Source of the DNA: Nereocystis luetkeana
Lineage: Eukaryota; Sar; Phaeophyceae; Laminariales; Laminariaceae
Assembly (NCBI GenBank): GCA_031213475.1
Contig: JARUPZ010000018.1
Coordinates: 1,612,001-1,676,000 of the forward strand
Reading direction: 5' to 3'
DNA length: 64,000 nt
Part shown: in pieces, positions 5,880 to 54,750 of the stretch
Layout: every line of letters begins with the position of its first letter
Position numbering within the stretch: position 1 is the first letter of the stretch
Program-made: the position numbers and the translations under genes
The notes under the pieces: model-generated
Databases searched by the model: none
What the model was told of the DNA's origin: nothing
Seen by the model: only the letters and a program-made list of their open reading frames with translations

Positions 5880-8800
5880 ATGAGACTGATAAGGCCATGG
5901 CTGAAGGCCGAGCTGGAATCCATCCTACAGGACGGGGTCAACGACGAACAACCTTCGCATCGTCGGTTCCGGAATCGCTCGAAAAAGCAGCATGTGCAGT
6001 GCGTCGAGGTGGACGAGAAGCGCAGCGCGCTCAAAATCAACGACACAGACTCCATGGTGTGGTGCTTCGTCTCCACGCCAGGCATGAATAATGTGAGTGA
6101 CAAGATGGTAAGGCCCCGCGTGGTAGGCGTGGCAGATGCTCACACTGCGATTGTTGAGGTACATCCGCAATTCTGTGAATGCATACCTGGTATGATGTAA
6201 ACGGCGAGACTTCTCAAATTTGAAAAGTTTGACGGCCTGCTGCAGCGGTGCCGCCGGTAGGTAGCCCGTACCCGTCCAAATTCAATTACACGGTGCATGT
6301 CTACCTGGTATGTGCCATACCAGGCATCACGCATCACGCCCTGAGTTTTCACTCGGGAGTCGCGGGCACCTGTGGGGAGCACGTTCTCGCCGAACCAGAT
6401 AGTTTATCACCCTGCAGCTATGACGGCGGAAGTTCTATACCAGGTACGAGTACAGTACAGTAGTAGCTACGATGAACAGATGAACAGGCTGTCCTTTCGG
6501 TTGGCCTCCTTTTGCCGACCGCTCATGCCTCCCGCCAAAGGGTAAGGGTTGGAGCTGGGGACAGGGATAGAGTTCGATCAGGGTTAGCGTTGGGTTCGGG
6601 TTTTGGTCTGGGCCGACGTCCAAAATGTGAAGTTATTCACGAGTTTTATCTGCAAGGCGGCAAGTTGGTGTTGCAATCAGGGGCACCCAAGCAAGTGTTG
6701 CGGGAGCAGTATTCGTTGACATCACTCGCAATGATTTTCGCAACGTGCTGCTTGCTTGTATTTACACATCAGAGGCTCGAAACATGAGCTGCTTTCGGAG
6801 AGCTGTCGATTGATACCCCGTACCTGGTATATATCATATATCATACCTCGTACGTACACGATCGTGCTATCGACATCGTAAATCGATACCAGGTATGTGA
6901 GTACAGAGTACTGCTGCTGTACCGTACAGCAGTACAAACATGAAGTATTTACAGCGGTGGTAGTATATACAAGCATGCATAATTTGAAGCAGAATTACAG
7001 ACTTATCGTATATAGGCCGTGTCCTACGCAGTTCGATTTTGGAGCTTCAGATTTTGACCCAATCGCATTTTCAGAGGTGAACTTGGCAAATCGAAACAGT
7101 CTTCCTATGCGGAAAAAAATCAGATGTGAACTTGGCAAATCGAAACAGTCTTCCTATACGGAAAAATCAGATTTGTGTGTAGAGATTCGAGCAAGCGCCG
7201 AGACCAACTGCTGTTTTTGTGGTTTGGCGCCGAGAAAAGACGCGCTGGGTGCGCTGCCCTGCGCGTAGGACCCGAACGCCCGAGCCAAGGCTGACTGTCT
7301 CTGGTCTGACGGCAAAGAGACGCGGCGAGTGCGCTAGAGCCAACCTGTCTTGGTATTTTGGGTTCAATTTTGTGACTGACCGCTCCTGCTGTACAGCAGT
7401 GTAGTCTACGAGTACTCGTACGTATCCGCGGAGAGATGCGTGCCGAGTGCGCTTCTCTTGACCTCTAGACCCGAGCCCTCGCCAGGGGACTGTAGTCTGG
7501 CCACAGAGGGACACGCCGCCCGCCGCCCGAGCGTCGGGCGCGAAGCAACGTCGCTATACAGCTGTGCCACCATCCAACTCATCGATCGTTCTGCTGCTGT
7601 TTGCTGTCGTGGATAACATCTTGAATTTAGAGAGCATGCCATTTTTCGATTTGAAAATCTGACGACCCAGGTCGTCGGATTTTGGGCCAAAATCCGACGA
7701 CTTGGGTCATCGGATTCTCAAATCGAAAAAAAAACGGCCGGATTTTGCTTATTTGGACTGCATAAGCAGGGTCATTCGTTTTTGAGATGAAATAATTCAA
7801 ATCTGAAGCTCAAAATAGAACCGCATACCCTGATAGGAAAGCCTAAGGGCCGTTCCTAACGAATCGAAAAAACAAACACGATTCATGAGTTTTTGGCGTA
7901 ACAAAAGATCACGATCCGTGACATTTCAGTTCTAACAAGCCAAAAAACGTCACGTTTCGTGATATTTCCAGATTGTAAAAATTCCGATATTTCAAACCCA
8001 ACGATTTTTGGGGGGGGTGCCAAGTCTCGCGAGTGGGGCACGACCATGCCGGGCCGGGCCGATCGCGCCTGGCCCAGCCCAGCCCGTGATATATTCGAAT
8101 CACGGGCCGAAGCCTGACCCAGCCTGCGAGATTCCAATCTCGCCGACCGTCGGCCAAGCCCGGTCCACGAGATTCCATCTCGCAGGCCGTCTGCCCGACC
8201 TGGCCTGTGATATTCTCAGGTCATTTTCGCTTTTGTCTTCGAGCTGTGGCTCCTGCTTCTCGAAGTTTGGAGGCCACAACGTGCTCGTTAACCCGCGCCC
8301 GGCAGTGTCTTGGGTAGCCGCCCGGTGTCCACAAGTGGCGTATGAAGCAGAGTCTGCCATGCCCCTATACCGGCCCTCGGATACCGTGGGCGCCCGTGGG
8401 TTGCGTAGTGCCTTGATCAGGCGTATTCCGGAGACACGACAAATGTCACGAATCGTGATTTTGTTTTTTTCGGGGAAATCTGAAAAAATTGGCGTCATGA
8501 ATCATGCTTTTTTTGTCATGATTCACGACAAAAAAATCACGATTCAAAACAAAAATCTCACGAATCACGTTTTTTTTAATTCGTTAGGAATGGTCCTTAC
8601 AGCTCATCAGTAGACTTCAGTACATCAACAGCTGTGCCGCAATGTCAGCTTCCTGTTATCAGGTATCAGGGTTATAATCAGCATTTGCGCTGGCGCAACA
8701 TTTTGGTCAAAATGGCCGTTTTCCGCAACAGCCGCGGAGGGCCTGGTTGCGAGCAGCGCAACACGCATTCAAGGCCCAAAACATTGTTGCGGGCTATTTT

Positions 8801-11800
8801 GTTCGCCGTAGGCCAACAAAAACACTGTTTTTCAAATTCGCCTTTGGCGAAAACAAATTGAGCCCCCCTTTTGAGTTCGCCGTATGGTATTTTTTTTGCA
8901 AGATCCTTTTTCCATAGTAGAACAAAAAAAAGTTAGGTTCTGATCTCGATACACGCCTCTTTGAGGTTTGCGAGGCGTTTAAACGCACTTTGTTACTTGG
9001 TTTTCGGGCATTTATTCGCACATATACTTGTATCGTAGTTTTCTGCGGCGCGCAACACGCCTTGCGTCGCCTGTTGCGCTGCGCGCAACAGACACCGGAC
9101 CACTAATTATATCCCTGCCAGGTATCAACTGCCTTCGCTTAAGAGTACGGAATGGAAGCTCTTGTTCAACGTTCCCCGTTCCCCAACCCCACCCCGACTC
9201 GCCCCTTCCCGCTCCCCGCCGACTGACAGTTCAAAACCCTAAGAAACCCGACGTTCGGAAGCCTGAACAGCAAGACCATCACCATCGAGGACTGGGAGTT
9301 CTCGTCCCTGAGCGTGTTGTGCCCCTCCTTCGAAGAGAAGAAGGCCAAATCCAACGGCCAGATCTGTATCTTGGTGAGAGCAAGCGACGGCAAGGGCAGC
9401 CGGGGTCCCAACGGAGGTCCCAGGGGAGGTCCCAGCGGGTCCCGGGAGCGAAACAAACGGCAGTCCACGTCGAGAACTCCCGTTTCCCTTCTTCCCCCCC
9501 TTTACTATGACTGCACCCGCGACTTAGGCACGGAACCCTTGAAAATAGAGGAGGTTTTTTTTTTGTGCAGTGGGCTGGAATGATACCAGGTATACAACAG
9601 TAGTAGAACAACTGCTGGACAAACTACTTGGAAATAGACTATTTCGGGGGGAAATTGTAGTAAAAACCCTGTGTGGTAGTTAAAAAGTAAGAGAAGGAGG
9701 GATATACAGTATATAGACGAGTTTTTTGGGGTCCGTCGTGAGTTCTGATTACTATCACTGCGTCCCAAAATATAAGGATCGTTTATGATATATAATAATA
9801 TACAAACGCTCCTCATGTTTAGGGACAGAGTCGTACGTATGTATTTACTATCGCCCCCCAACGTAATGGTATTACATACAGCTGTACAGCAGTAGTAACC
9901 TTTTTCGGGACTCGAGAGGAGGAGAATGTTGAAAGTGGGAGTCATAAATGGTCACAATGGCGGTTACACGACCGACTGCCGCGGAGCAGCCCGGGCTTCT
10001 GGCGTACGGGATGTGTCCGGAGCGCAGCCTTTAGGGGCTGTACGACAGGGGCGTGGGCGTGGTGACGTTTTTTTTTTTTTTCTCTGCTTGCAAACCCTTG
10101 GTAGACTAGGCGCTTTGGCAACATCGCACTCGTCATTTTTCTTTGTGTCGCTTTTATGTGTAAGCATGGGTCATGTAAGGATCGCGTAGCGTGTATGATG
10201 CTGTAGGCTTTAGCAGTAAAAGTAAAAATAGTTGTTGCGGGAACGAAGGCGATGGAATGCGATCGCTCATCGGAACACAGCAGTAGCAGGCAGTCGATAC
10301 GCGCTTGTCGAACACGACAGCAGCCCTACTCGCTTGAATATACCGGTATGTACTAATTGTTGAAACTCTTGGAGTGCGTCGACAAGGTCGCGCCGTTCCA
10401 TTCACCCGGAAGGGAACGTTAAGCTGCTGACGATCTCATGTAATCGGAGATTTTTTTCAAGACCACCAGTGTAGGGCCAGCTTCGACAAAATGGTTGATA
10501 CGTGCTTGACTTTTATGCACAACCCTAGCACTAAAACCCCAACCGCCCTGCGAAATTTCTTGGAACGATTTTTAACCCCGACCGCCCTGGGAAATTTCTT
10601 GAAATGAAGATGTCAGGGCGTGCTGTTAAAGTGTGGGCTATTAGCAGTCAGTAGTTTGGGATATATATCAACCCTTGTCAGTCGAAGCTGGGATTAGTTC
10701 TAAACACTACCAGGTACTATTTACTACTACTGCTGTGTATAACGTGCGTAAGCCCCGTCTCAGAAGAAGTGGCGCGCATCGACAGATGCTCTATATCAAT
10801 GCCCCATACCCTCCTCCGCCTGCAGCTGCAAGCTGTCCGGTGACTCACGTTACTCGGTGTGCCCGGCCTACGTTGATTCTTGTCCCTCTGCTGCCCACGG
10901 GGCGGGGGTTTCTCGGGCATTTTTTTGTCTTGGCCGTGTGGCGGCAGATCTCCAAGTTTAGCCTTTTGAGCGGCGAGCGTACGACCACGGTTGGGTATCC
11001 CACGAACCTCGGGGAAGGAAACCGGGACCTGCGCGCCATGCTGCGCTCTCTTTCCAACCCGAAAATCCTGGTGCGGGCTCTGGCGCGAGGGCAGGGGCTG
11101 ACGGACCTGCGGGACGCAGAGGGGGTTTTGATGAGCGCTCCAAGTTTGAAGGTGGGTGGATGGGTGGGTGTGTCCTTCACGGACGTTACACGCTGGTTGC
11201 TGCGTTATTTTTTACCTGTACATGCATGTGGGTAGCACTAAAAAGACATACCAGGCACGTATAGTCGGACGTACGAAGAACGTGGAAGGACGTGGAATGA
11301 CACATGCCGTCGGAGCAAGCGGTAATTGCGTAGCTTTTTGTTGTTGTCGTTGTCTGCTCGGTGAGCCGGTCGCTCTCGCTGGTGTGGCTGTTGTTGTTTT
11401 TGTGTTGCAGTAATTGGTGTTGATGTTCTAGTTTTGGTTTGTTTTTTTCGAGTTCGTTACGTGCGGCTTTCCTGTCTGTCTGCGCTCTGAGCCGATTGAC
11501 CCTTGGATGTTTCTACGTCCTAGAAACGAACGTAATCTCTCGTGACAACGGATTCGTACGTACGTAAATATCCCCGAAAAGCCAATGAGGCGTCGTCTGC
11601 ATTTGCTGCTCCTGCTGAGGACCCCCCCCCCGCCCCGGCGACTCGCCTTACCGTCGCCGCCTACCCCGAACTCAAATATCGCACGCTCATGGCGCGACTT
11701 GAATATGTATCTATATATATATATATTAAAACAGATGTCGTGGAGCGATGTGGACCGGGAGCTACTGATGGATTCAGCGACAGCGCCTACACCTGCAAGC

Positions 11801-13735
11801 GAACGAGCTGCAGCGCGCCCCACTGCACCGCAGCAGACCCCGCAGAAGGGGAAGCAGCAAAGCCAGCCCGGCGCTGCATCCCCTAGAGGGGCACGACGCT
11901 CGCCTGCCGCGGGCGACGCGCCGGGTGGCGCCGTCGTCGGGAGTAGTCCACTGCAGCACCCGGGAGAGCCTGCTGTAGACGACATGAGTCAGGTGAGCCT
12001 GGGGATGGAGTACGAAGGCGGGCTTGAGGAAAGCCAAGACATGTTCCACACGCAGGCGCCGTCGGCTGGAAACGTTTTCAGCCAGGAGGCGATGGACATG
12101 CGCCCTGTGTCGCCGTCTCCTTCTCCGACCCCGTCTTCTCCTTCTCCCGAAGTTGGCGGTGCTCCGGAGGCGTCCACGGCGGCTTCGGCGGTGGTAGCGG
12201 CGACCCCACCTTCTACCGGAGTTGGCGGTCCTCCGGTGGCGTCCACGGCGACTGCGGCGGCGGTAGCGGCGACGGTGGCGGCGGCCGCGGCATCGGCGGC
12301 AGCGACATCGGCGGCGGCGGCGGCAGCGGCGGCGGGAAGGCAACCGTCAAACCCCCTCTCGGGCGCGTTAAGCCCTCCGAGTGTTTTGCCGACGCTCCCG
12401 GTGGATGAAGAGGACCTCAGTACTGAAGACGGCTCCGGCAACTCTTCTTCGGAGAGCCCGGAGCGCGAGGTGACGAAGAGGGTGACGCGCTCGAAAACGG
12501 TCAAGGAGGCGCCACAGCAAGCGATCGCGGGCGGGAAGGAGAAAGCTCGAGGGGGAGAGGGGGAGGAGGAGAAGGAGCGGGAGGAGGGGCAGGAGGAAGA
12601 AAGCCAGGATTCTCCAGTGCCCCCTGGTCTCACGCAGCTTGACGTGTTGCCGGAAGGCGAGACATCAGAGCAACCGCCGAACGGGGTGGACGAGGAGGAC
12701 GAACTACTCAAAGACACCGAAGAGTCGGCGGTGGAATGGCGTGCCGGGAAAGGTGCCGCCAGGAGGGGGGCGACACGGGGAGCCACCACGAAAGGAAAGG
12801 GGAAAGGAAAGGAGATCGGGAAAGGGAAGGGAAGGGCCAAGGCACCGGATGCCGACACCGGCGAGAGCTTGCACGTGCCGCGGCAGCAACCAACCAAACC
12901 AGCCTTGAGACAAGGACCGGAATCCGGAGCACCAAACCGTATTATTAAGGGAAAGGGCAAGGGCAAGGCGAAAGCACTGGTGGTAGGCGACGGCGGCGAC
13001 CGTGGCGGCGCCTCCTCCGATACCTTCGACTGCTCTCCGTCACCGGATGACATTCTCAGCCCGGAAGAGGTGTCCGCCCTCAAGCAGTTGGAGCTGAGCT
13101 GCCTTACGCAGAAACGGCAGAACGAGGGGGAGAGTGAGCCCAACAGCGATGCCCGCGCCGCGTCGCGCGAGTGCGACATACGCAGCCGTTTCGGGGGTAG
13201 TGGCAGCGGCAGCGGCTACGGTGAGGGCTCGGGGTCCCGTGCTAACGTCGCTGGTGGCCGTGCACACGGCGGAGGGGGTAGTGGCAGCGGCGACGGCAGC
13301 GGTAGCGGTGTTGGTGGCAGCGAACGAGATGCTATACTGACCCCCGACACTGACGACGGGCCGGGTGGAGGGGTGATATCGTGGAGGGACCCGCTCTACG
13401 AGAAGGCCGCCAAGACGTTCCCGGCGCAGCCATTGCAGAGTGGCTCCGTGTCAAGGTGGAAGCGGACTCGTCCGCTGTCCGACGTTCTCGTCACCGTGGA
13501 CGTGCAGAACTGGGACCAGCAGAGTCGGCCGGCTATAATCGCGCGCGGATACAAGGCGCTCAGGTCGCTGGCGGAATTTTTGGACGAGCCCAAGTCGAGG
13601 AGGCAGCCCCAGATGACGATAGGAGGGTTGCTGGATAGGTGCAAGGAGGCTGACGAACGGCGCAACAAGCGCTCTAAGGGCGGTAGGGGTGACGGCGGCG
13701 GCAGCGACGGCGGGAGTAGCTCGGATGCCCGATAG
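5880..13735 (+). CDS. TPP1/ACD-like telomere OB-fold protein, 4 exons
   Basis: Exons 5880-6092, 9230-9373, 10948-11151 and 11735-13735, all joined in phase 0, encode 853 residues. Donors are gtgagt, gtgaga and gtgggt; each acceptor is a cag. The ATG at 5880 follows an in-frame TAA at 5865. Residues 1-187 match the OB fold of shelterin TPP1 (ACD): an N-terminal RPWL as in human RPWI, a strand ALKIND..VWCFVS matching TLLVSD..VRCLVT, then GQICILISKFSLL matching EFYLQVDRFSLL. The spacing between these anchors equals the human spacing across two exon junctions. In TPP1 this fold caps POT1 and recruits telomerase; the function here is inferred. The acidic telomerase-recruiting loop is not visible at the aligned site. 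The remainder is low complexity: poly-Ala about 360-389, acidic 450-480, Gly-Lys repeats 535-557, Gly-Ser 672-715, then an ordered-looking, unrecognised segment 734-834. Family assignment is by eye; a different OB protein such as Est3 or Tpz1 type is possible. Confidence 0.62.
7013..7844. mobile_element. Harbinger/Tourist-like element, copy R1
   Basis: Terminal inverted repeats of about 38 bp begin GGCCGT..CCTACGC and end with the complement of TATGCGGTT..GAGCTTCAG. An internal hairpin at 7640-7725 pairs cgatttgaaaatc..ggtcgtcgg with its inverse copy. R1 carries a tandem duplication of a 50-60-bp internal segment (about 7072-7165) and, near its right end, an insertion turning TA into TACCCTGATA relative to R2 and R3. 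GGCC termini suggest the PIF/Harbinger class. No transposase; non-autonomous. Confidence 0.75.
7845..8600. mobile_element. second inverted-repeat element abutting R1
   Basis: Left end GGGCCGTTCCTAACGAAT and right end the complement of GGACCATTCCTAACGAAT form terminal inverted repeats; subterminal cacgattcatg and tcacgaatcatg stretches are also inverted. The centre (8030-8220) is a GC-rich set of short repeats of the word cgagattcca. It starts directly where R1 ends. Non-autonomous; ends resemble Harbinger-like MITEs. The long plus-strand frame inside is an artefact of the repeats. Confidence 0.65.
9753..9835. mobile_element. mariner-like MITE, copy N1
   Basis: An 80-bp palindromic element bounded by TA. 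Left end cactgcgtcccaaaatataag, right end the complement of CGACTCTGTCCCTAAACAT; the centre is AT-rich. TA boundaries and the TCTGTCCC..AAATATAAGG terminal word point to the Tc1/mariner (Stowaway-like) class. Confidence 0.65.
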
Positions 13736-31669: not shown

Positions 31670-34614
31670 ATGTATTCGCACAACAGACGCCGAAAAACCC
31701 CCGTCCGCGAGAAGAAGGCGTACGATACAAGCGTGAGAGCGTTTTCTCCCGATGGAAGCATCTATCAGGTATCGTTGATCAAGCCGGCACGGCCCACCTC
31801 TTTTCTGATTCTATTCGTGGGAAACAATAGGGCAGCACTGTTGTACGAGCGCCATCCGCGCTACGTACGTACCCCCCCCCCCCAGGGAGCTGCCGACTCT
31901 GTTACACCAAGCTGTTTCGACAACCTGTACACTCTGTACACAGCAGTGCAGCAGCAATACTGGCATCAAAATCTGCTCGATTATGTCCTACCGAGTACCT
32001 TGAGTAAACGTGTACATGTACGTACCAGGTATACTAGAGCTAGACGACGGTTACTGCAACTGCCCTGCTCAGCTGCCTAGGTTTTCTTGGGTGTGTGTCG
32101 TTCCTATCTTGACTGGTAGACTGTTGATTGGAAGGGATGACCTACAGTAGTACGTAATGGTCCCTCTATAGTGCAGGTTGCCTGCTATAGTGCCTGTAGA
32201 ATCGCTGGCACAGGTGGCATTCACCAGTGTGGCAGTGTGCGGAGCATATAATGCCGGTTGGCGCTACGAGTATAGTGCCGGTATTGTTGGCTGGTGCATA
32301 CCGGCACTATAGAGGAATTACTACTGTTCTCTCCCTTCTACCCAACAAAAAAACGGGCTCGTCCCGCGTCCTGGTTGAAAACCTGAGCATCCACGATCCA
32401 CGACTTCAACCTTACCATTGACGCGTTTCGCTTGCCTACTCCGCATTCAATACCCACGTGTCACAGCCGATATTTCGCACGATCTATATACATAAACTGG
32501 TACCAATATATGATACACAACGTCAGATTAATCTGTAACCAATCGACGCATCCGACGCACACCAGGTAGAGTACGCTGTGCAAGCGGCGCAAAAGGGAGG
32601 TCTCACGATCGGTGTACAGACGGACCGAGGACTGGTGTTGGCGGCGCAGGGTCGGCGGCGCTCGCCACTCCTCAAGAGCTCGTCCGTTTGCAAGATCGTC
32701 GACATCGATGTCCATATGTTCTGTGCCATGTCGGGATTGCTCCCGGACGGCCGTTTGTTAGTCGACCACGCGCGGTGAGTCCGATTAAATAGTGCCAGTA
32801 GACAATAGGGTACAGCTAAAGTGATTATATTGCATTAGTACGTACTGCTGTAGCCACGTCTAGGTCGCCGTTCAACGATACAGCATGCTACAGTAGCTAT
32901 CCCAGCACAGCGACATCGATGATCGAGGTGCGTAGACATTTCGCTACCACCAGCCGCAGTACCAGCAGTCCAAACACTGTATGTATCTGTGCGGCCCTCT
33001 CTATATTAATAGCCGTCCAGAGGTAAATTGATGCGGTGCGGAATGTTGCCCAAGCCAACCTCTGCCAACAGCTGCGGCCGTTTGTATTTTTTCTCGCCAT
33101 CCGCGCACAGCACGTGGGTGCAAGAGCACCGCTTCGAGTTCGACGAAGCTCCAAGCGTGGAGGCAGTGGCGGCACAGCTGAGCCGATTGGCTCTCAAGTT
33201 TAACGGGTACGACGCATCCGGGGAACAGGGAGAAGGCGGGAATCAGGGTGGTTTGGCGATGTCTAGACCGGTGGGCGTTGCGCTGCTAATGGCGGGAATA
33301 GACTGCGGAGGTCGTCCGGTGCTGTACCACCTCGACCCGTCTGGTGAGGCTTGGGTCATGGCGTTCAAAACGATCCAGGCGATGCTAAGATTAGCTCGCT
33401 TCGTGCGGAGTTGTGGTATAAAAATTGAATACGTACGTAGTACGTGTAAGATATGTAGGCGAGTGATCCAGGCATGTCATAGCGCCCGCAGGAAGTGGTT
33501 CAAGTGTTGCGCTGTTATTTCCTCCTTTTTCGCGAACAAAAAAGTCGTCTACCTGGCTATCTGGGATTGTTATTGTTCTCACATCAACTTATCGCCACAA
33601 TGCATGCAGTCTGTGGTAGCAGGACAGGCTAAAGAAACTATGGAGCGAAATATTCCCTGCGAGGAGGGAAACATAAAAACGTATCTGGTGGGGTGGGTGG
33701 TGCCGAGTTGCTGACCGGATCACCAAGTATGTCTCTCGTGGTAATTGATCTTCCTCTTGTTGTGTGTAGCTCCGAACTTGCATCACGTATACTTGTATAC
33801 TCGTATACGTAGGTGCTTTTTTCTTCGTGTTCCGCGCAGCGGCCAAAAGTATGGAAGAAGCCGAAACACCACACGCTGCTTGCAAAGTTGAATTCCGGCG
33901 TACTCTTGATCCCACAGCAGGTGAGGTGTCTTTTTTTGTATTTTAAAATGAAACAACGAATGCGAGGCTGTGAGCTTGCTGACTCAACCTGACTCGAGCC
34001 CCCCCATCCCCCTATCCCTGTGTCCGGCCGCAGGAGCGTACGTCCAGTGGAGGGCAAGAGCGATCGGCGAAGAGAGCTCCGCCGCGGAAGCCAAGCTCGA
34101 AAAAGCTGGGCCCTATGAAGGCATGACCGTACGACGGGCCATGGCGACAGTGCTCAGAGTACTCAAGGACGTCCTCGGGGACGACTTTTGTGTTGACCGG
34201 CTCGAAATGGTCTGCGTGGACAACCTGCGTGAAGACGACGACGAGGAGCAACTCGATAAAACGATCGAAGGCCCGGGGCGGAAGCACCGACGGGATATCT
34301 CGCGGTCCGATGGCCAGGAACAAGGCTCGCCGACGATGTCGTCACAGGACAGCCACGGCAGCAGCAGCAGCAGCAGCAGCAGCAGTATTAGTAGTAGCAG
34401 TAGTAGGATAGGTGGGAGTAGTGGTAATGGTAGTGGTGGTACTGGCGCAAGCGATCGAGAAATCAGCAGTAACGGGAAGGTCGCGGCAACTAACGGTTCG
34501 CCTGGGGCGATTCCTCCAATGCCGCGACATTTTGGACTGTTTCGAAGAGTTTCCAAGAGCGAGATGGAAAAGTTGCTTGTTGACGAGCTCGCAGCGACTC
34601 AGGTTTCTGCGTAA
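31670..34614 (+). CDS. PSMA5: 20S proteasome subunit alpha type-5, 4 exons
   Basis: Exons 31670-31768, 32566-32774, 33111-33343 and 34034-34614 join in consistent phase to 373 residues. The N-terminal proteasome-alpha signature is YDTSVRAFSPDGSIYQ|VEYA, split by the first intron exactly between Q and V. Diagnostic alpha-5 features follow: IVDIDVHMFCAMSGL, MSRPVGVALL, YHLDPSG and YVQWRARAIG. The protein belongs to the outer ring of the 20S core and has no catalytic threonine. The usual length is about 241; the excess comes from a longer N-terminus, a Gly-rich loop before MSRP, and a Ser/Gly/Asp-rich block at about residues 244-339 placed before the last helix (HFGLFRRVSKSEMEKLL). The block contains AGC and AGT runs. 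The ATG at 31670 is the only ATG before the signature in this exon, but an extra 5' exon is possible. A TACCAGGTA motif sits in the first intron. Confidence 0.9.
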
Positions 34615-35372
34615 TGACATTGTTGGTGGTGATTGTGACGTGATTTGTTTTTTTGTGTGGTTTTGAGGTTTTGTTTTGAGGTGCGCACATCTCGCTCGTT
34701 ATTTTTCCAGGTCGTGCGGCCGAGCGGGCTGATGCCTCCACTTCTTTATTTCAAGAAAAGATACTCTAGTCTCCAGAGTCTTGGAGGCTGCGTGGACTTC
34801 TGGAGATCTGGAGATGTAGAGTAAACGAGCTTCGGTACTCCGGGACCCATGACCCATGATTCACCACACAAAGCCCTTGAGCCCATTGGCCTGACCAACA
34901 CAACAAGTAAGCGTCGCGCGTGGTAGAAAGAAAATAAAAAAGAAGGCACGAGTACAGCATTTAAAATTAGTACGAGAGTGCGTATACTCGTATATGAACT
35001 AGAACACGAATTACTTGCGTTGTTGTATACATTCGCACTATATAAGTACAGGATTCCAACCATTAATATGTGACGAGCAGCGTGTTGCAGCAGTATCAGG
35101 GCGTGGTATTTTTTAAGACGTGCTCGGACTCGTTCTATCGCGACCCGTCTCCCTTGCTATACCAGGCGCAATTGGGTTCGCTGTTGGTTGCTGGTCTTCG
35201 TTGCGGTTGAAACGTTGAAACAGTAATACCAAGTACCAAGTACCTGGTATCCATTATCCATCCCCTCTTCTCTTCGAATACACGCCACATAATCTGTTGG
35301 AAACCCTGCGTGAAAACCAACGCATCCGACAACACAACACAAGACTGCAACTGGACACCTGGTGTGGAAGCA

Positions 35373-37960
35373 ATGAAGCTGCTGGAGCCACACGGACCGG
35401 CCATGATGTACATGATGATTTCCTTCGTTCTTTCCACCTTCGTACTCGTCTCGTCATTGAGTCGATGGCCCGATATCGCCGACATCGACCCTTTCGATGA
35501 GCACCTCGCACGCCAGATCGTCAACTTGACCGAGGCAGCCTACTGCGCGGACAAGCTCGTCGACTGGGACTGCAGGGTGTGCCAGAACTTTCCGGGTATG
35601 ACCAACGTCACGGTCCTTCAAGGTAAATCACGGAACGTGCGGGGTTTCGTCGGGATCGACACCGGCGTTGATCCCGTTGGCGTTGGACGAGGAGATGAAC
35701 TCCGGAATGGAGCGGCGGTATGGAATTTTTTGGAGCCCGACAGCAGTACAGGTAGTACCAGCAGCAGCAGTGAAGCACAACAAGCAGCCGTCGACGTGGA
35801 CGCCGCCGCCGCCGCTAGCCTCGCGGCGATGGCTGTCACCACTAGACGACGGCATCTCCGAGCTTGGTCTAACAGAGACTACACAACGGGTCCGAGGAAA
35901 TCGAAAGTTGTCATCACGTTTTCGGGGACGGACCCGAAGAGCATAAAAAATTGGATCGATGACTTGGAGGCGGCTCCAATCGCGCATGTCTACGGGAACG
36001 CATGCGAGGAATGCAAGGTGCACCGAGGTTTCTTGGCTGCCTACGGGATCGTACAGGACCAGGTGGGTGGCTGGGTGGCGAAGGGTGGACCGAGGTGTTC
36101 TTGGGGCGGGTACGTAGGGGCAAGCCCTCACGATGACCTACTCGTGGAGGCTTCCGTTCTCTACACTGCTGTTTAGCAATTTTTCTGACATTTATCCCGG
36201 ACGAGTACTACTAATATTAATATTAAAGGAGTGACGAGTACGAGTTCTGCTGTTCGGATTGAGTTGAAGTTCAACGTCTACACAATACTGCTGTCGTAGC
36301 GCAATTATTTTACTGCTGCTGCTGACTGCTGAGTCCAGTTTAGAGCTGTCAGTCGGCAAGATCTCACTACTGATATCTCTTCGGTAGGTGCCGTTAGCCA
36401 ACTAATTGACTTTCGTCGGCAAGTCGGCTGGCGAAGCCAGCTGATAGCCGGCCAACTTGCCGACTTAAGTCGGCGAGCGAAGCGACCAAAACCATCCCCC
36501 CCCCCCCCCCCCCCGAGAGAGCCCCGCCCTTAGAAAAATCAATGTACCCTGCATTCAACAATCCTTCCTGACAAGGATGGAAAACCGATAGGTCGGATAG
36601 TCGGCACCCCCGGCATACGACTAACTGTTATTCCAACTATTAATAATGACTAGTGTGTGACTCAAGCCGTGTAGACCCACAGATCTAGGCCGCCAGCGAA
36701 GCCCCCTCGTATGCTGATCAAGATCCCCGTACTGATTGCACGGCTTGGATTAAAAACAGGATCATTGATGAGTAGTGAGTTCATGATATAGATCGTGAGA
36801 AACCGTTCATGAGTTCGCAGGACCTGTATACGATAGTACTAATAGTAGAAGAACACCCACGAACGACTGACCGCTCGGCGTGCGAAGTGGGGGATCGACC
36901 ACTTCAGTTATGCTCACAGATGACGTCCGTGTTCGTAACACATGATAAGTCACGAAAAATGTGCGCCCGCATCCAGAGGACCATGGCCGATGGGAAGAAC
37001 ATGTCGAATCCTTCTCTTGGGAATGAGTCATGAATGGATAGACCATGCGTCAAGTCAACGCTTGTTTGGCGCGGGCACGCACGGTTCTCCACCGCGGAGG
37101 CGTAGGACATGTGTGTATATTATCATTCGCGTTTGCCACGCACGATATTCGGACAGCCTCAACAGTACACTCAGCATGTCTTGTCCCGTATACCGGTAAC
37201 ACGTATCGAGCTCTTTTTTTCAAGGGCTCTAAGCGAACGCACTTGCGTTTATTCGAAGAACTTGCGAAACATATAATGTACGTTCAATTTCATGTTGCAT
37301 GCTATCTCTCCGAGAGTATACAATTGGTGTCCCGCACGTAAAACGGAACCGCTCCTTGCTCTTCTGCTTTCCCGGTCTCCCCACCCCCATGCCCCTTCCG
37401 GTCGATCGAAGATAAGGGCCGCGGTTGCCGGCCACCTTCAGCACAACCCCGCCGCAGAAATTATGATCACGGGCCACTCCTTGGGGGGCGCGCTCGCGAC
37501 GCTTTGTTTCTTAGACCTCGAAAGGACGCTGGGCGTGAAGGTGTCTTTCGCACCCCTCTACATCTACGGCGCCCCTCGGGTGGGCAACGCGGCGTTTGCG
37601 GCGTACTCGGCCTCGCGCGGCGTCCCCATCTTCAGGGTGGTGCACAACCGTGATCCTGTCCCCCACCTTCCGTTCGAAGCCTGGGGATACGTCCACCCTC
37701 CGCGCGAAGTGTTTTTCGACGGCCCTCAGGAGAGCTACGTGGTGTGCGACGAGAGCGGGGAGGATGCGACGTGCTCGGACCAGTTCTGGGTGATGCCGGG
37801 GTTGGCCCACGTGGGCGATCACTTGGAGTACCTGCAGGTGGACTACACCAAGGCTTATCTGACGTGCATGCTAGCCGAAGGGAGGGAGGAAAAGGAGGAG
37901 GAGACGGACGAAGCCGCTGCGGCTGCGGACACGGCGGCGGTGGCGGTGGTAACAGGTTGA
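35373..37960 (+). CDS. secreted class 3 lipase, 2 exons
   Basis: Exons 35373-36062 and 37412-37960 (donor cag|gtgggt, acceptor cgaag) give 412 residues in phase 0. An N-terminal hydrophobic stretch, about residues 11-31 (MMYMMISFVLSTFVLVSS), looks like a signal peptide or anchor. The alpha/beta-hydrolase lipase_3 fold follows: RNVRGFVGID, VVITFSGTDPKSIKNWIDDLE, VHRGFLAAY, the nucleophile elbow GHSLGGALA (Ser253), YGAPRVGN, and the acid NRDPVPHLP (Asp311). The catalytic His is most likely His367 in GDHLEYL. It should cleave ester bonds of triacylglycerol-like lipids outside the cell or in a lumen. Odd: about 70 residues of Ser/Ala-rich, poorly ordered sequence (around nt 35655-35890) interrupt the beta-sheet between FVGID and KVVITFSG; an exact donor-like caag|gtaaat at 35621 could splice part of it out, but RNVRGFVGID just after it looks genuine. 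The intron holds a hairpin repeat (36400) and a GATC-rich relic. The C-terminus is an acidic/Ala tail. Confidence 0.88.
36400..36660. repeat. D-repeat, copy 1, with hairpin and poly-C
   Basis: Begins with a hairpin: gtcggcaagtcggctggc pairs with gccggccaacttgccgac around a short loop, followed by a C19 tract (36496-36514) and ccctgcattcaacaatcctt. Related to 40385-40680. Lies in the lipase intron. Confidence 0.65.
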
Positions 37961-52971: not shown

Positions 52972-53772
52972 TCTCGCCAGGTCCCAGCCTTCCTTAGCCT
53001 CAGTAGTATTCCCTTGCTTGCTGCGTTGGTCCGTGGAGCTCTCCTTGGGAGAGGGCGCCGGGTGTGCCTCTAGCGGATGCTCTACGCCGTCCTTCTCGCT
53101 TGTCGAAGCCAGCCGAGTTGCGCAGCAGGAAAAAGAAAGGAAGCAGTCCAAAAAAGGAAGTTGTTTTGCCACCACTGCTGCAGTTGACTGCTGCTGTTGA
53201 CAACGCTGCAATTAACCTGATATTCCGTAGGCACACTGGCAGCAGGAGGCTCGCTCGCCCCGCTTCTTTTTTTGTCGAGCACGGTGCGTTCAAGTCCTTC
53301 AGTCGGCGACGCTCTTCGCTCAGGGTAGGTAGGGTGAGGCCGCGGAGATTTTGTGGGATCTTGTGTGCTGCTGTGTGGGACCCCAACGATCCGTCTCCGC
53401 GGTTCGCAGTTCGCAGGGTCGCCGGCGTTTTTGATACACGGATGTTTTTGTTTTCTGTCGTTTCATAAGCGGCAAGAAATAAAAATCCGAATATGGAATT
53501 AAAGAATAAGAATCTACGTAGACTGGTTCGTAGAAAATACCAAAAGACAGACCCACCAAAGAACCAAAGAAGCGATGACGCGTTTTGGACTACATGTTGT
53601 ATGGAAGGCCTTGTCCACTAGGGGGTGATGGGACATGCGTGCGGCGCGGAACGAGCACCCCACACTGACTAACTGAAAGTGGTGCTGCTTTGGAAGTGGA
53701 CCGTGCGGGGCACCAAACAGCTGACGGGCTAGGAAAACCACCGGCGAGTGCTAGTCTAGGTGGCGACACACA

Positions 53773-54750
53773 ATGAGGGTTCTTAGAGGATGTGTGGCCA
53801 TGGTGCTCCTTGCGCTGCCCACGGGCAACGCCGCCCAGCAGGCTGGGACTGTCAAGTCTCCCAAAGCAGGGAACAGAAAGCAGCAGCAGAAGCAGCCTCT
53901 GCCGACGCTCACCACGCGGGATAGCTTCGTGACGGGCCTCCTCTCCGGCGCGGTGGCGGGAACCACGGTAGACCTCATCCTCTACCCCCTGGACACGGTG
54001 AAGACGAGGCTGCAGGCGACCGCAGGAGCGAAGCTCTCGGTGAAGACCTTCGAGGGGCTCTTTAACGGAGTCGCCCCCGCCATCGCCGCCAGCGCCCCGT
54101 GCGCGGCGGTCTTCTTCGGCGCGTACGACACCCTCAAGCGCGTGCTCACGGACAAGCTCCCCGACGACTACGCCTCCGTGGCGCACGCAGGATCGGCGGC
54201 TGGAGCCGACCTCGTCCAGAGCGTGGTCCGAGTCCCGTTCGAAGTGGTGAAGCAGCGGGTGCAGGCGGGCGTCGACTCCTCCGGGCGGGCGGCCCTGGCC
54301 AGCGTCTTGCAGACGCAAGGCCCTCGCGGGCTCTACCGAGGCTGGGGCGCGCTCGCCATGCGCGACCTGCCGTTCGACATCATCGAGTTTCCGCTCTACG
54401 AGTGGTTCAAGAGTGAGTGGACGAAGAAGAAGGGGGAGAAGCTCGCTCCGTGGCAGGGCTCCCTCTGCGGGTCCGTCGCCGGCGGCATCGCCGCCGGCCT
54501 CACGACGCCCCTGGACGTCGTGAAGACGCGGCTCATGACCCAGAGCCCCGGGCAGTACTCCGGCATCGCCAGCTGTCTACGGTCTATCGTGAAGGACGAG
54601 GGGGCGGGGGCTCTGTTTGCCGGTGCCACGCCGCGGATGACGTCGATCGCGTTCGGAGGGGCCATCTTCTTCGGCGCTTACGAGACGGCGAAAGCGGTGA
54701 TCTCGGTGAAGATGGAGGAGAGGAGCGCGGCGGCCGCGGCGAAGGCGTAG
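53773..54750 (+). CDS. mitochondrial carrier, S-adenosylmethionine carrier type
   Basis: Single exon, 325 residues, ATG at 53773. Three mitochondrial-carrier repeats carry the P-x-D/E-x-x-K/R signature: PLDTVKTR (72-79), PFEVVKQR (155-162) and PLDVVKTR (246-253), each after a hydrophobic helix and followed by glycine-rich linkers such as GLYRGWG and ALFAGATPR. The opening GAVAGTTVDLILYPLDTVKTR, the VVRVPFEVVKQR block and LPFDIIEFPLYEWFK are typical of the SAM carrier branch (SLC25A26, plant SAMT), which swaps cytosolic S-adenosylmethionine for the homocysteine product inside the organelle. Substrate is inferred from overall resemblance. The first ~22 residues are hydrophobic and end in an Ala-rich cleavage-like site before a basic Gln/Lys linker, so a cleaved signal or plastid pre-sequence is possible. 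GC-rich codon use is typical of the nuclear genes here. The opposite-strand frame at 53590-54318 is a shadow. Confidence 0.93.
   Translation: MRVLRGCVAMVLLALPTGNAAQQAGTVKSPKAGNRKQQQKQPLPTLTTRDSFVTGLLSGAVAGTTVDLILYPLDTVKTRLQATAGAKLSVKTFEGLFNGVAPAIAASAPCAAVFFGAYDTLKRVLTDKLPDDYASVAHAGSAAGADLVQSVVRVPFEVVKQRVQAGVDSSGRAALASVLQTQGPRGLYRGWGALAMRDLPFDIIEFPLYEWFKSEWTKKKGEKLAPWQGSLCGSVAGGIAAGLTTPLDVVKTRLMTQSPGQYSGIASCLRSIVKDEGAGALFAGATPRMTSIAFGGAIFFGAYETAKAVISVKMEERSAAAAAKA

What the first reader, a model, noticed from the sequence alone, without database searches (positions are those of the whole stretch)
5880..13735. Candidate shelterin TPP1/ACD ortholog with a huge low-complexity C-terminus
Three phase-0 exons reproduce the TPP1 OB-fold landmarks: RPWL start, ALKIND/VWCFVS strand pair, and GQICILISKFSLL strand. 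From the VWCFVS strand to the SKTITI strand there are 24 residues, the same as in human TPP1 as I remember it, and the FSLL block aligns across another intron. Such agreement across two introns is hard to get by chance. TPP1-type proteins evolve fast and are often unannotated outside animals, fungi and ciliates. The acidic TEL-patch loop appears replaced (KTLRNP), hinting at altered telomerase recruitment. The C-terminal segment at residues 734-834 could bind a POT1 or TIN2 analogue.
Basis: partly seen in the sequence, partly recalled or inferred. Interest (0 to 1): 0.87.

Follow-up and report, generated by a model that had tools for sequence, protein, structure and literature searches.

The report
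Brown-algal TPP1/TEBP-beta telomere protein candidate
A gene in what is probably a brown alga appears to encode a fast-evolving relative of the TPP1/TEBP-beta protein that helps cap chromosome ends and guide telomerase in animals, fungi and ciliates.

Summary
Four exons joined by three phase-0 introns (5880-6092, 9230-9373, 10948-11151, 11735-13735, + strand) encode an 853-aa protein. An 853-aa orthologue is deposited as an "unnamed protein product" in the brown alga Pylaiella littoralis and a partial one in Hapterophycus; they confirm the junctions and show conserved blocks in the low-complexity tail. The N-terminal ~190 residues are the conserved domain. Of the family members tested, the closest by sequence is not human TPP1 but its ciliate counterpart TEBP-beta: TEBP_beta is the top Pfam match of three orthologous domains (E 0.004, 0.008, 0.02, all below Pfam's cut-off), and alignment scores to Oxytricha TEBP-beta stand 4-8 s.d. 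above shuffles. Human TPP1 and TEBP-beta do not find each other in the same tests. An RPW motif shared with TPP1 and Est3 precedes the domain, and the same genome carries a clear POT1. No database-wide match is significant, and two AlphaFold models were too poor to test the fold. I judge this a probable new, divergent member of the TPP1/TEBP-beta/Est3 family, perhaps POT1's partner. The acidic TEL-patch loop is largely replaced. POT1 binding and telomerase recruitment are inferred, not shown.

The parts
5880..6092 (+). Exon 1 (residues 1-71): N-terminal RPW motif, predicted beta1-beta3 of the OB-like domain
   Evidence: 29 of 29 exon-1 rows (incl. the window's own P0002) keep the phase-0 donor
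5892..5906 (+). RPWLK motif (residues 5-9), aligned by MAFFT with RPWIR of human TPP1 and QPWIK of yeast Est3
   Evidence: the motif or a close form is in 27 of 48 proteins; of the 31 that contain exon 1, four (P0044-P0047) lack it (with P0001 and P0048 counted)
5994..6071 (+). VQCVEVD...LKIND...VWCFV (residues 39-64), predicted beta1-beta3
   Evidence: AlphaFold strands 41-45, 50-54, 59-65 of P0001 (model poor overall, block means 78, 79, 64 here); alignment to TEBP-beta and TPP1
6093..9229 (+). Intron 1, phase 0 (3.1 kb)
   Evidence: phase conserved in relatives
9230..9373 (+). Exon 2 (residues 72-119): TEL-patch-equivalent loop and SKTITIEDWEF segment
   Evidence: exon-2 rows P0040-P0043
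9230..9265 (+). Loop FKTLRNPTFGSL (residues 72-83) in the place of human TPP1's acidic TEL-patch loop
   Evidence: MAFFT columns; human residue numbers and PMC10055720 passages
9269..9295 (+). SKTITIEDW (residues 85-93), aligned with DKVIVINNW of TEBP-beta and GRLLLLQDC of TPP1; presumed beta4
   Evidence: not formed as a strand in the AlphaFold models
9374..10947 (+). Intron 2, phase 0
10948..11151 (+). Exon 3 (residues 120-187): ISKFSLL segment and helical C-terminal part of the N domain
   Evidence: 13 exon-3 rows incl. the window's own P0003
11152..11734 (+). Intron 3, phase 0
   Evidence: junction supported by the SWxDV continuation in P0001 and P0048
11735..13735 (+). Exon 4 (residues 188-853 and stop): low-complexity tail with conserved blocks
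   Evidence: no Pfam family below E 3
11987..12106 (+). Conserved tail block 1 (residues 272-311): SLGMxYxG...TQAPSAGNVFSQExMDM
   Evidence: picked by eye from window against P0048; coordinates; no PDB match
12614..12643 (+). Conserved tail block 2 (residues 481-490): PPGxTQLD
13088..13192 (+). Conserved tail block 3 (residues 639-673): LSCLTQKRQNEG...PNSxAR...CDIRSxF
13400..13639 (+). Conserved C-terminal block 4 (residues 743-822): FPAxPLQ...RPLSDVLV...IARG

Best explanation
This is a nuclear gene, probably of a brown alga, encoding a divergent member of the TPP1/TEBP-beta (and Est3) family of telomeric OB-fold proteins. Shown: a conserved four-exon gene; an N-terminal domain that aligns with TEBP-beta better than chance, preceded by an RPW motif; and a long low-complexity tail with blocks conserved in Pylaiella. 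Inferred: the domain is an OB barrel; the protein pairs with the alga's POT1 through a tail block, strengthens POT1's grip on the 3' G-strand overhang, and brings telomerase to the end through its OB domain. Because most of the acidic TEL-patch glutamates are missing, docking on TERT would need a different, conserved surface (the NP[ST]FxSLNxKTITIxDW segment is the best candidate).
Against: No match reaches a curated cut-off or a database-wide significant E-value: TEBP_beta 17.3, 16.3 and 15.0 bits against 26.6; for whole P0048 it is second (E 0.22) to an unrelated family (0.16); no PDB sequence match for the single sequence or the 11-row profile; HMMER E for TEBP-beta at PDB size is 1.2 and 2.3. 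hhalign's own probability is 4.3% for TEBP-beta and 0.8% for human TPP1, where the alignment is off-register and at least 10 of 300 shuffles score higher. Noise of similar size exists: DUF7183 at E 0.005 for fragment P0039; Inhibitor_I24 (PinA) recurs at E 0.04-0.2 in the window domain, in 4 of 11 rows and in three of the fragments. Est3 is hardly better than the controls (p 0.028; 152 of 2000 shuffles as good). AlphaFold gave pLDDT 53.5 and 53.6, pTM 0.27 and 0.31, so no barrel is shown; VIA-align listed no TPP1. PF07404 found nothing in the exon-by-exon genome search, whose controls were silent too. No expression, binding or telomere data exist here.
Confidence: 0.8

Rival explanations
1. 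It is an OB-fold protein of another telomere or single-stranded-DNA complex (CST subunit, RPA-like, SSB-like), and its resemblance to TEBP-beta is generic OB similarity.
For: Foldseek with the weak model also lists RPA, RADX, HIN and S1 chains at non-significant E. The AlphaFold strand order is only generically OB-like.
Against: TEBP_beta is the top Pfam family of the three exon1-3 domains, and no other telomeric or RPA/SSB family is listed. The two control OB sequences score far below TEBP-beta with the algal HMM. The RPW motif is shared with TPP1 and Est3.
Confidence: 0.12
2. It is an Est3-like telomerase subunit rather than a POT1-bound shelterin subunit (same family, other role; overlaps with the best explanation).
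For: The PW[IL]K motif at the N-terminus matches Est3 (QPWIK) as well as TPP1.
Against: Est3 is the weakest of the three family matches (p 0.028 with the 3-row and 0.049 with the 37-row profile) and its 181 residues leave no room for a long tail. Budding yeasts with Est3 have no POT1 homologue (PMC7338525 passages); this genome has POT1.
Confidence: 0.05
3. It is a brown-algal protein of unrelated function; the match is chance in a fast-evolving domain.
For: All database-wide E-values are sub-threshold, unrelated Pfam families appear at similar E, and AlphaFold gives no fold.
Against: Three orthologues (related, so not independent) rank TEBP_beta first. The alignment is collinear with the same beta3-beta4 spacing. 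Of 2000 shuffles none reaches the TEBP-beta HMM score, of 300 none the hhalign score.
Confidence: 0.08

Closest known systems
Oxytricha TEBP-beta (PF07404; PDB 1pa6_B, 2i0q_B)
   Same: Window domain aligns over residues ~36-173 (local alignments of P0001 and P0048 stop after the DDW); KTITIxDW aligns with KVIVINNW and ILINKF with IVHSFK; closest of the three members tested by HMM and hhalign. Beta4-to-beta5 spacing is similar, 35 against 33.
   Different: The alga has an N-terminal RPW motif that MAFFT does not find in TEBP-beta, and a long tail with no recognised resemblance to it.
Human TPP1/ACD OB domain (PF10341; PDB 2i46_A)
   Same: N-terminal RPW[IL][KR] motif, LxxxDG..VxCxVT strand pair, FSLL strand; a long tail after the OB domain.
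   Different: TEL-patch E168/E169/E171 and F172 read L/gap/N and P here; the POT1-binding motif (human 266-320, PMC5394241 passages) was not recognised by eye in the algal tail.
Saccharomyces cerevisiae Est3 (PDB 9swn_C, 2m9v_A)
   Same: PWIK motif and strand order in the MAFFT alignment.
   Different: No long tail; weakest score of the three, near the controls.

Membership tests
TPP1/TEBP-beta/Est3 | Sequence-profile match to PF07404 or PF10341 at the curated cut-off | tested here: inconclusive
   PF07404 top but 17.3/16.3/15.0 bits against a cut-off of 26.6, i.e. the cut-off is not reached; PF10341 only at E 0.057 in one of 11 rows. Shuffle-controlled tests favour membership.
TPP1/TEBP-beta/Est3 | OB-fold barrel with TPP1-type topology | tested here: inconclusive
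   AlphaFold pLDDT 53.5 and 53.6; Foldseek lists human TPP1 chains at ranks 2, 3, 6, 7, 8, 16 and 38 of the 50 rows shown (66 matches), none significant; VIA-align lists none in its 14 rows.
TPP1 | Acidic TEL patch (human E168/E169/E171) for TERT docking | tested here: not met
   MAFFT columns read L/gap/N in the window, D/G/N in P0001 and P0048 (one acidic of three), K/F/N in TEBP-beta. Precedent: the corresponding Est3 surface of Hansenula is positively charged (PMC7338525 passages).
TPP1 | RPW motif at the N-terminal edge of the OB domain (that it marks the family is my inference from human TPP1 and Est3) | tested here: met
   RPWLK at residues 5-9, aligned with RPWIR and QPWIK by MAFFT. 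TEBP-beta lacks it. NOB function not tested.
TPP1/TEBP-beta | Binds POT1/TEBP-alpha through a region after the OB domain | not testable with these tools
   POT1 gene present in the same genome; conserved tail blocks exist, binding unknown.
TPP1 | Telomere localisation and telomerase recruitment | not testable with these tools
   No experimental data; the TERT search of the genome (PF12009) did not complete by the server.

The most novel reading that the evidence does not exclude
Brown algae have a POT1-TPP1-type complex whose TPP1 recruits telomerase through a largely non-acidic surface built around NP[ST]FxSLNxKTITIxDW, and whose long tail blocks bind algal-specific telomere partners. This would place the POT1-TPP1 pair in stramenopiles and make it ancestral to the ciliate and animal/fungal forms.
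Probability: 0.35. Interest if true: 0.78.

Novelty: new member of a known kind. Interest (0 to 1): 0.63.

Why it matters
TPP1-type proteins evolve so fast that human TPP1 and ciliate TEBP-beta are not found by each other's sequence in the tests made here. A stramenopile member that resembles both would link the ciliate and animal forms, support an early origin of the POT1-TPP1 pair, and give a multicellular lineage separate from animals and plants in which telomerase recruitment without a full acidic TEL patch can be tested.

Tried and rejected
Profile and single-sequence PDB searches: no hit (tail block 1). hhalign against human TPP1: not above shuffles; a first attempt failed on a format error. 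Two AlphaFold jobs on P0001 with fragment-rich alignments: pLDDT 53.5 and 53.6. VIA-align: 14 rows shown, no TPP1 or other telomere protein among them. Exon-by-exon genome search with PF07404: nothing, controls silent too. Reading exon 4 as a separate gene starting at its own ATG (11735) was considered; P0001 and P0048 both run across the junction, so I prefer one gene. Literature listings, rows shown of papers found: 15 of 1,022; 2 of 2; 15 of 427; 15 of 21; 10 of 27; 12 of 64; 7 of 7; 10 of 33. No title or abstract start shown reports a brown-algal TPP1; the lists are mostly capped, so this is no proof of absence. I saw passages only of PMC7658794, PMC7338525, PMC10055720, PMC4748036 and PMC5394241 and no whole text.
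Full report
What is there. The window is G000:C18:1612001-1676000 of an unnamed 465-Mb assembly in 1987 contigs. Two deposited proteins support the model: P0048, an 853-aa 'unnamed protein product' of Pylaiella littoralis, and P0001, a partial one of Hapterophycus canaliculatus. Both species are brown algae, Phaeophyceae, Ectocarpales, so the window is probably brown-algal too. A profile search gave 46 proteins, two of them the window's own exon ORFs; all ids together are P0001-P0048. Apart from P0001 and P0048 these 48 are single-exon pieces: 29 exon-1, 4 exon-2 and 13 exon-3 rows. All 29 and all 4 run into V as a phase-0 GT donor would; of the 13 exon-3 rows 11 are preceded by Q and 2 by K. 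The sources of these pieces are unnamed; that they are brown algae is inference.

Domain identity. Pfam ranks TEBP_beta (PF07404) first for the window domain (E 0.004, 17.3 bits, residues 34-142 on profile 12-118 of 140), for P0001 (E 0.008, residues 42-96 only) and for the P0048 N domain (E 0.02, residues 41-95 only). For whole P0048 it is second, at E 0.22. All are below the cut-off of 26.6 bits. Among the 11 rows of A2, TEBP_beta appears in 2 and PF10341 (TPP1) in one, at E 0.057. Three shuffles and a reverse of the domain hit neither family. Unrelated families reach similar values: DUF7183 E 0.005 for fragment P0039, and Inhibitor_I24 at E 0.04-0.2 in the window domain, in 4 of 11 rows of A2 and in three fragments. 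So one Pfam value of this size is not proof.

Structure. Two AlphaFold jobs on P0001 gave mean pLDDT 53.5 and 53.6. Some predicted elements follow the expected order in the second model (helix 6-17, strands 41-45, 50-54, 59-65, 117-122), but beta4 is missing and no barrel is shown. Foldseek with the second model gave 66 matches with E <= 10, none significant; human TPP1 chains (wild type or single-residue variants) stand at ranks 2, 3, 6, 7, 8, 16 and 38 of the 50 rows shown. Foldseek uses residues as well as shape, so this is one weak, partly dependent observation.

Partner and mechanism. The same contig carries a POT1 exon at C18:6946170-6946415 (-) (57.6 bits; 59.1 bits against a cut-off of 29; PDB POT1 chains E 2.6e-8). 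In ciliates and humans POT1/TEBP-alpha binds a segment of TPP1/TEBP-beta outside the OB domain (PMC5394241 passages). The algal tail has four blocks, picked by eye, conserved between window and Pylaiella (272-311, 481-490, 639-673, 743-822); the first lies nearest to where a POT1-binding motif would be expected, which is inference. Human TEL-patch glutamates E168/E169/E171 are called strictly conserved and cap TERT helices, and E-to-D changes there are tolerated (PMC10055720 passages). The window has none of the three; P0001 and P0048 have an aspartate at one; the TEBP-beta row has none. Hansenula Est3 has a positively charged surface there (PMC7338525 passages), so loss of acidity does not exclude a telomerase role.

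Verdict. I file it as a probable new member of the TPP1/TEBP-beta/Est3 family at the level of homology, nearer TEBP-beta than TPP1, and as 'works like POT1's partner' by inference. It does not meet TPP1's acidic TEL-patch criterion, so 'TPP1 orthologue with TPP1-like telomerase docking' is not claimed. No brown-algal TPP1 report was seen in the (mostly capped) listings. The confidences of the rivals overlap (the Est3-like reading is within the same family) and need not add to one.

Noticed in passing
window 1-64000: The 9-mer TACCAGGTA/TACCTGGTA occurs 45 times in 64 kb where base composition predicts about 0.5; CTGTACAGCAG (9 against about 0.04) and GTAGTAGTA are also frequent, probably parts of dispersed repeats.
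   Followed up: partly
L004 1501-1746 (-), i.e. G000:C18:6946170-6946415: An exon of a clear POT1 (PF02765) lies on the same contig, about 5.3 Mb from the window gene.
   Followed up: yes
window 53755-54747 (+): A single open frame with a mitochondrial carrier protein match (PF00153, E 3.9e-57, three stretches).
   Followed up: no
window 33013-33711 (+): An open frame with a proteasome-subunit match (PF00227, E 3e-6, 31 residues).
   Followed up: no
window 35211-36173 (+): A weak class-3 lipase match (PF01764, E 0.0025, below cut-off).
   Followed up: no
window 11992-13215 (-): A 408-aa open frame on the opposite strand of exon 4, probably a by-product of its GC-rich low-complexity composition.
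   Followed up: no
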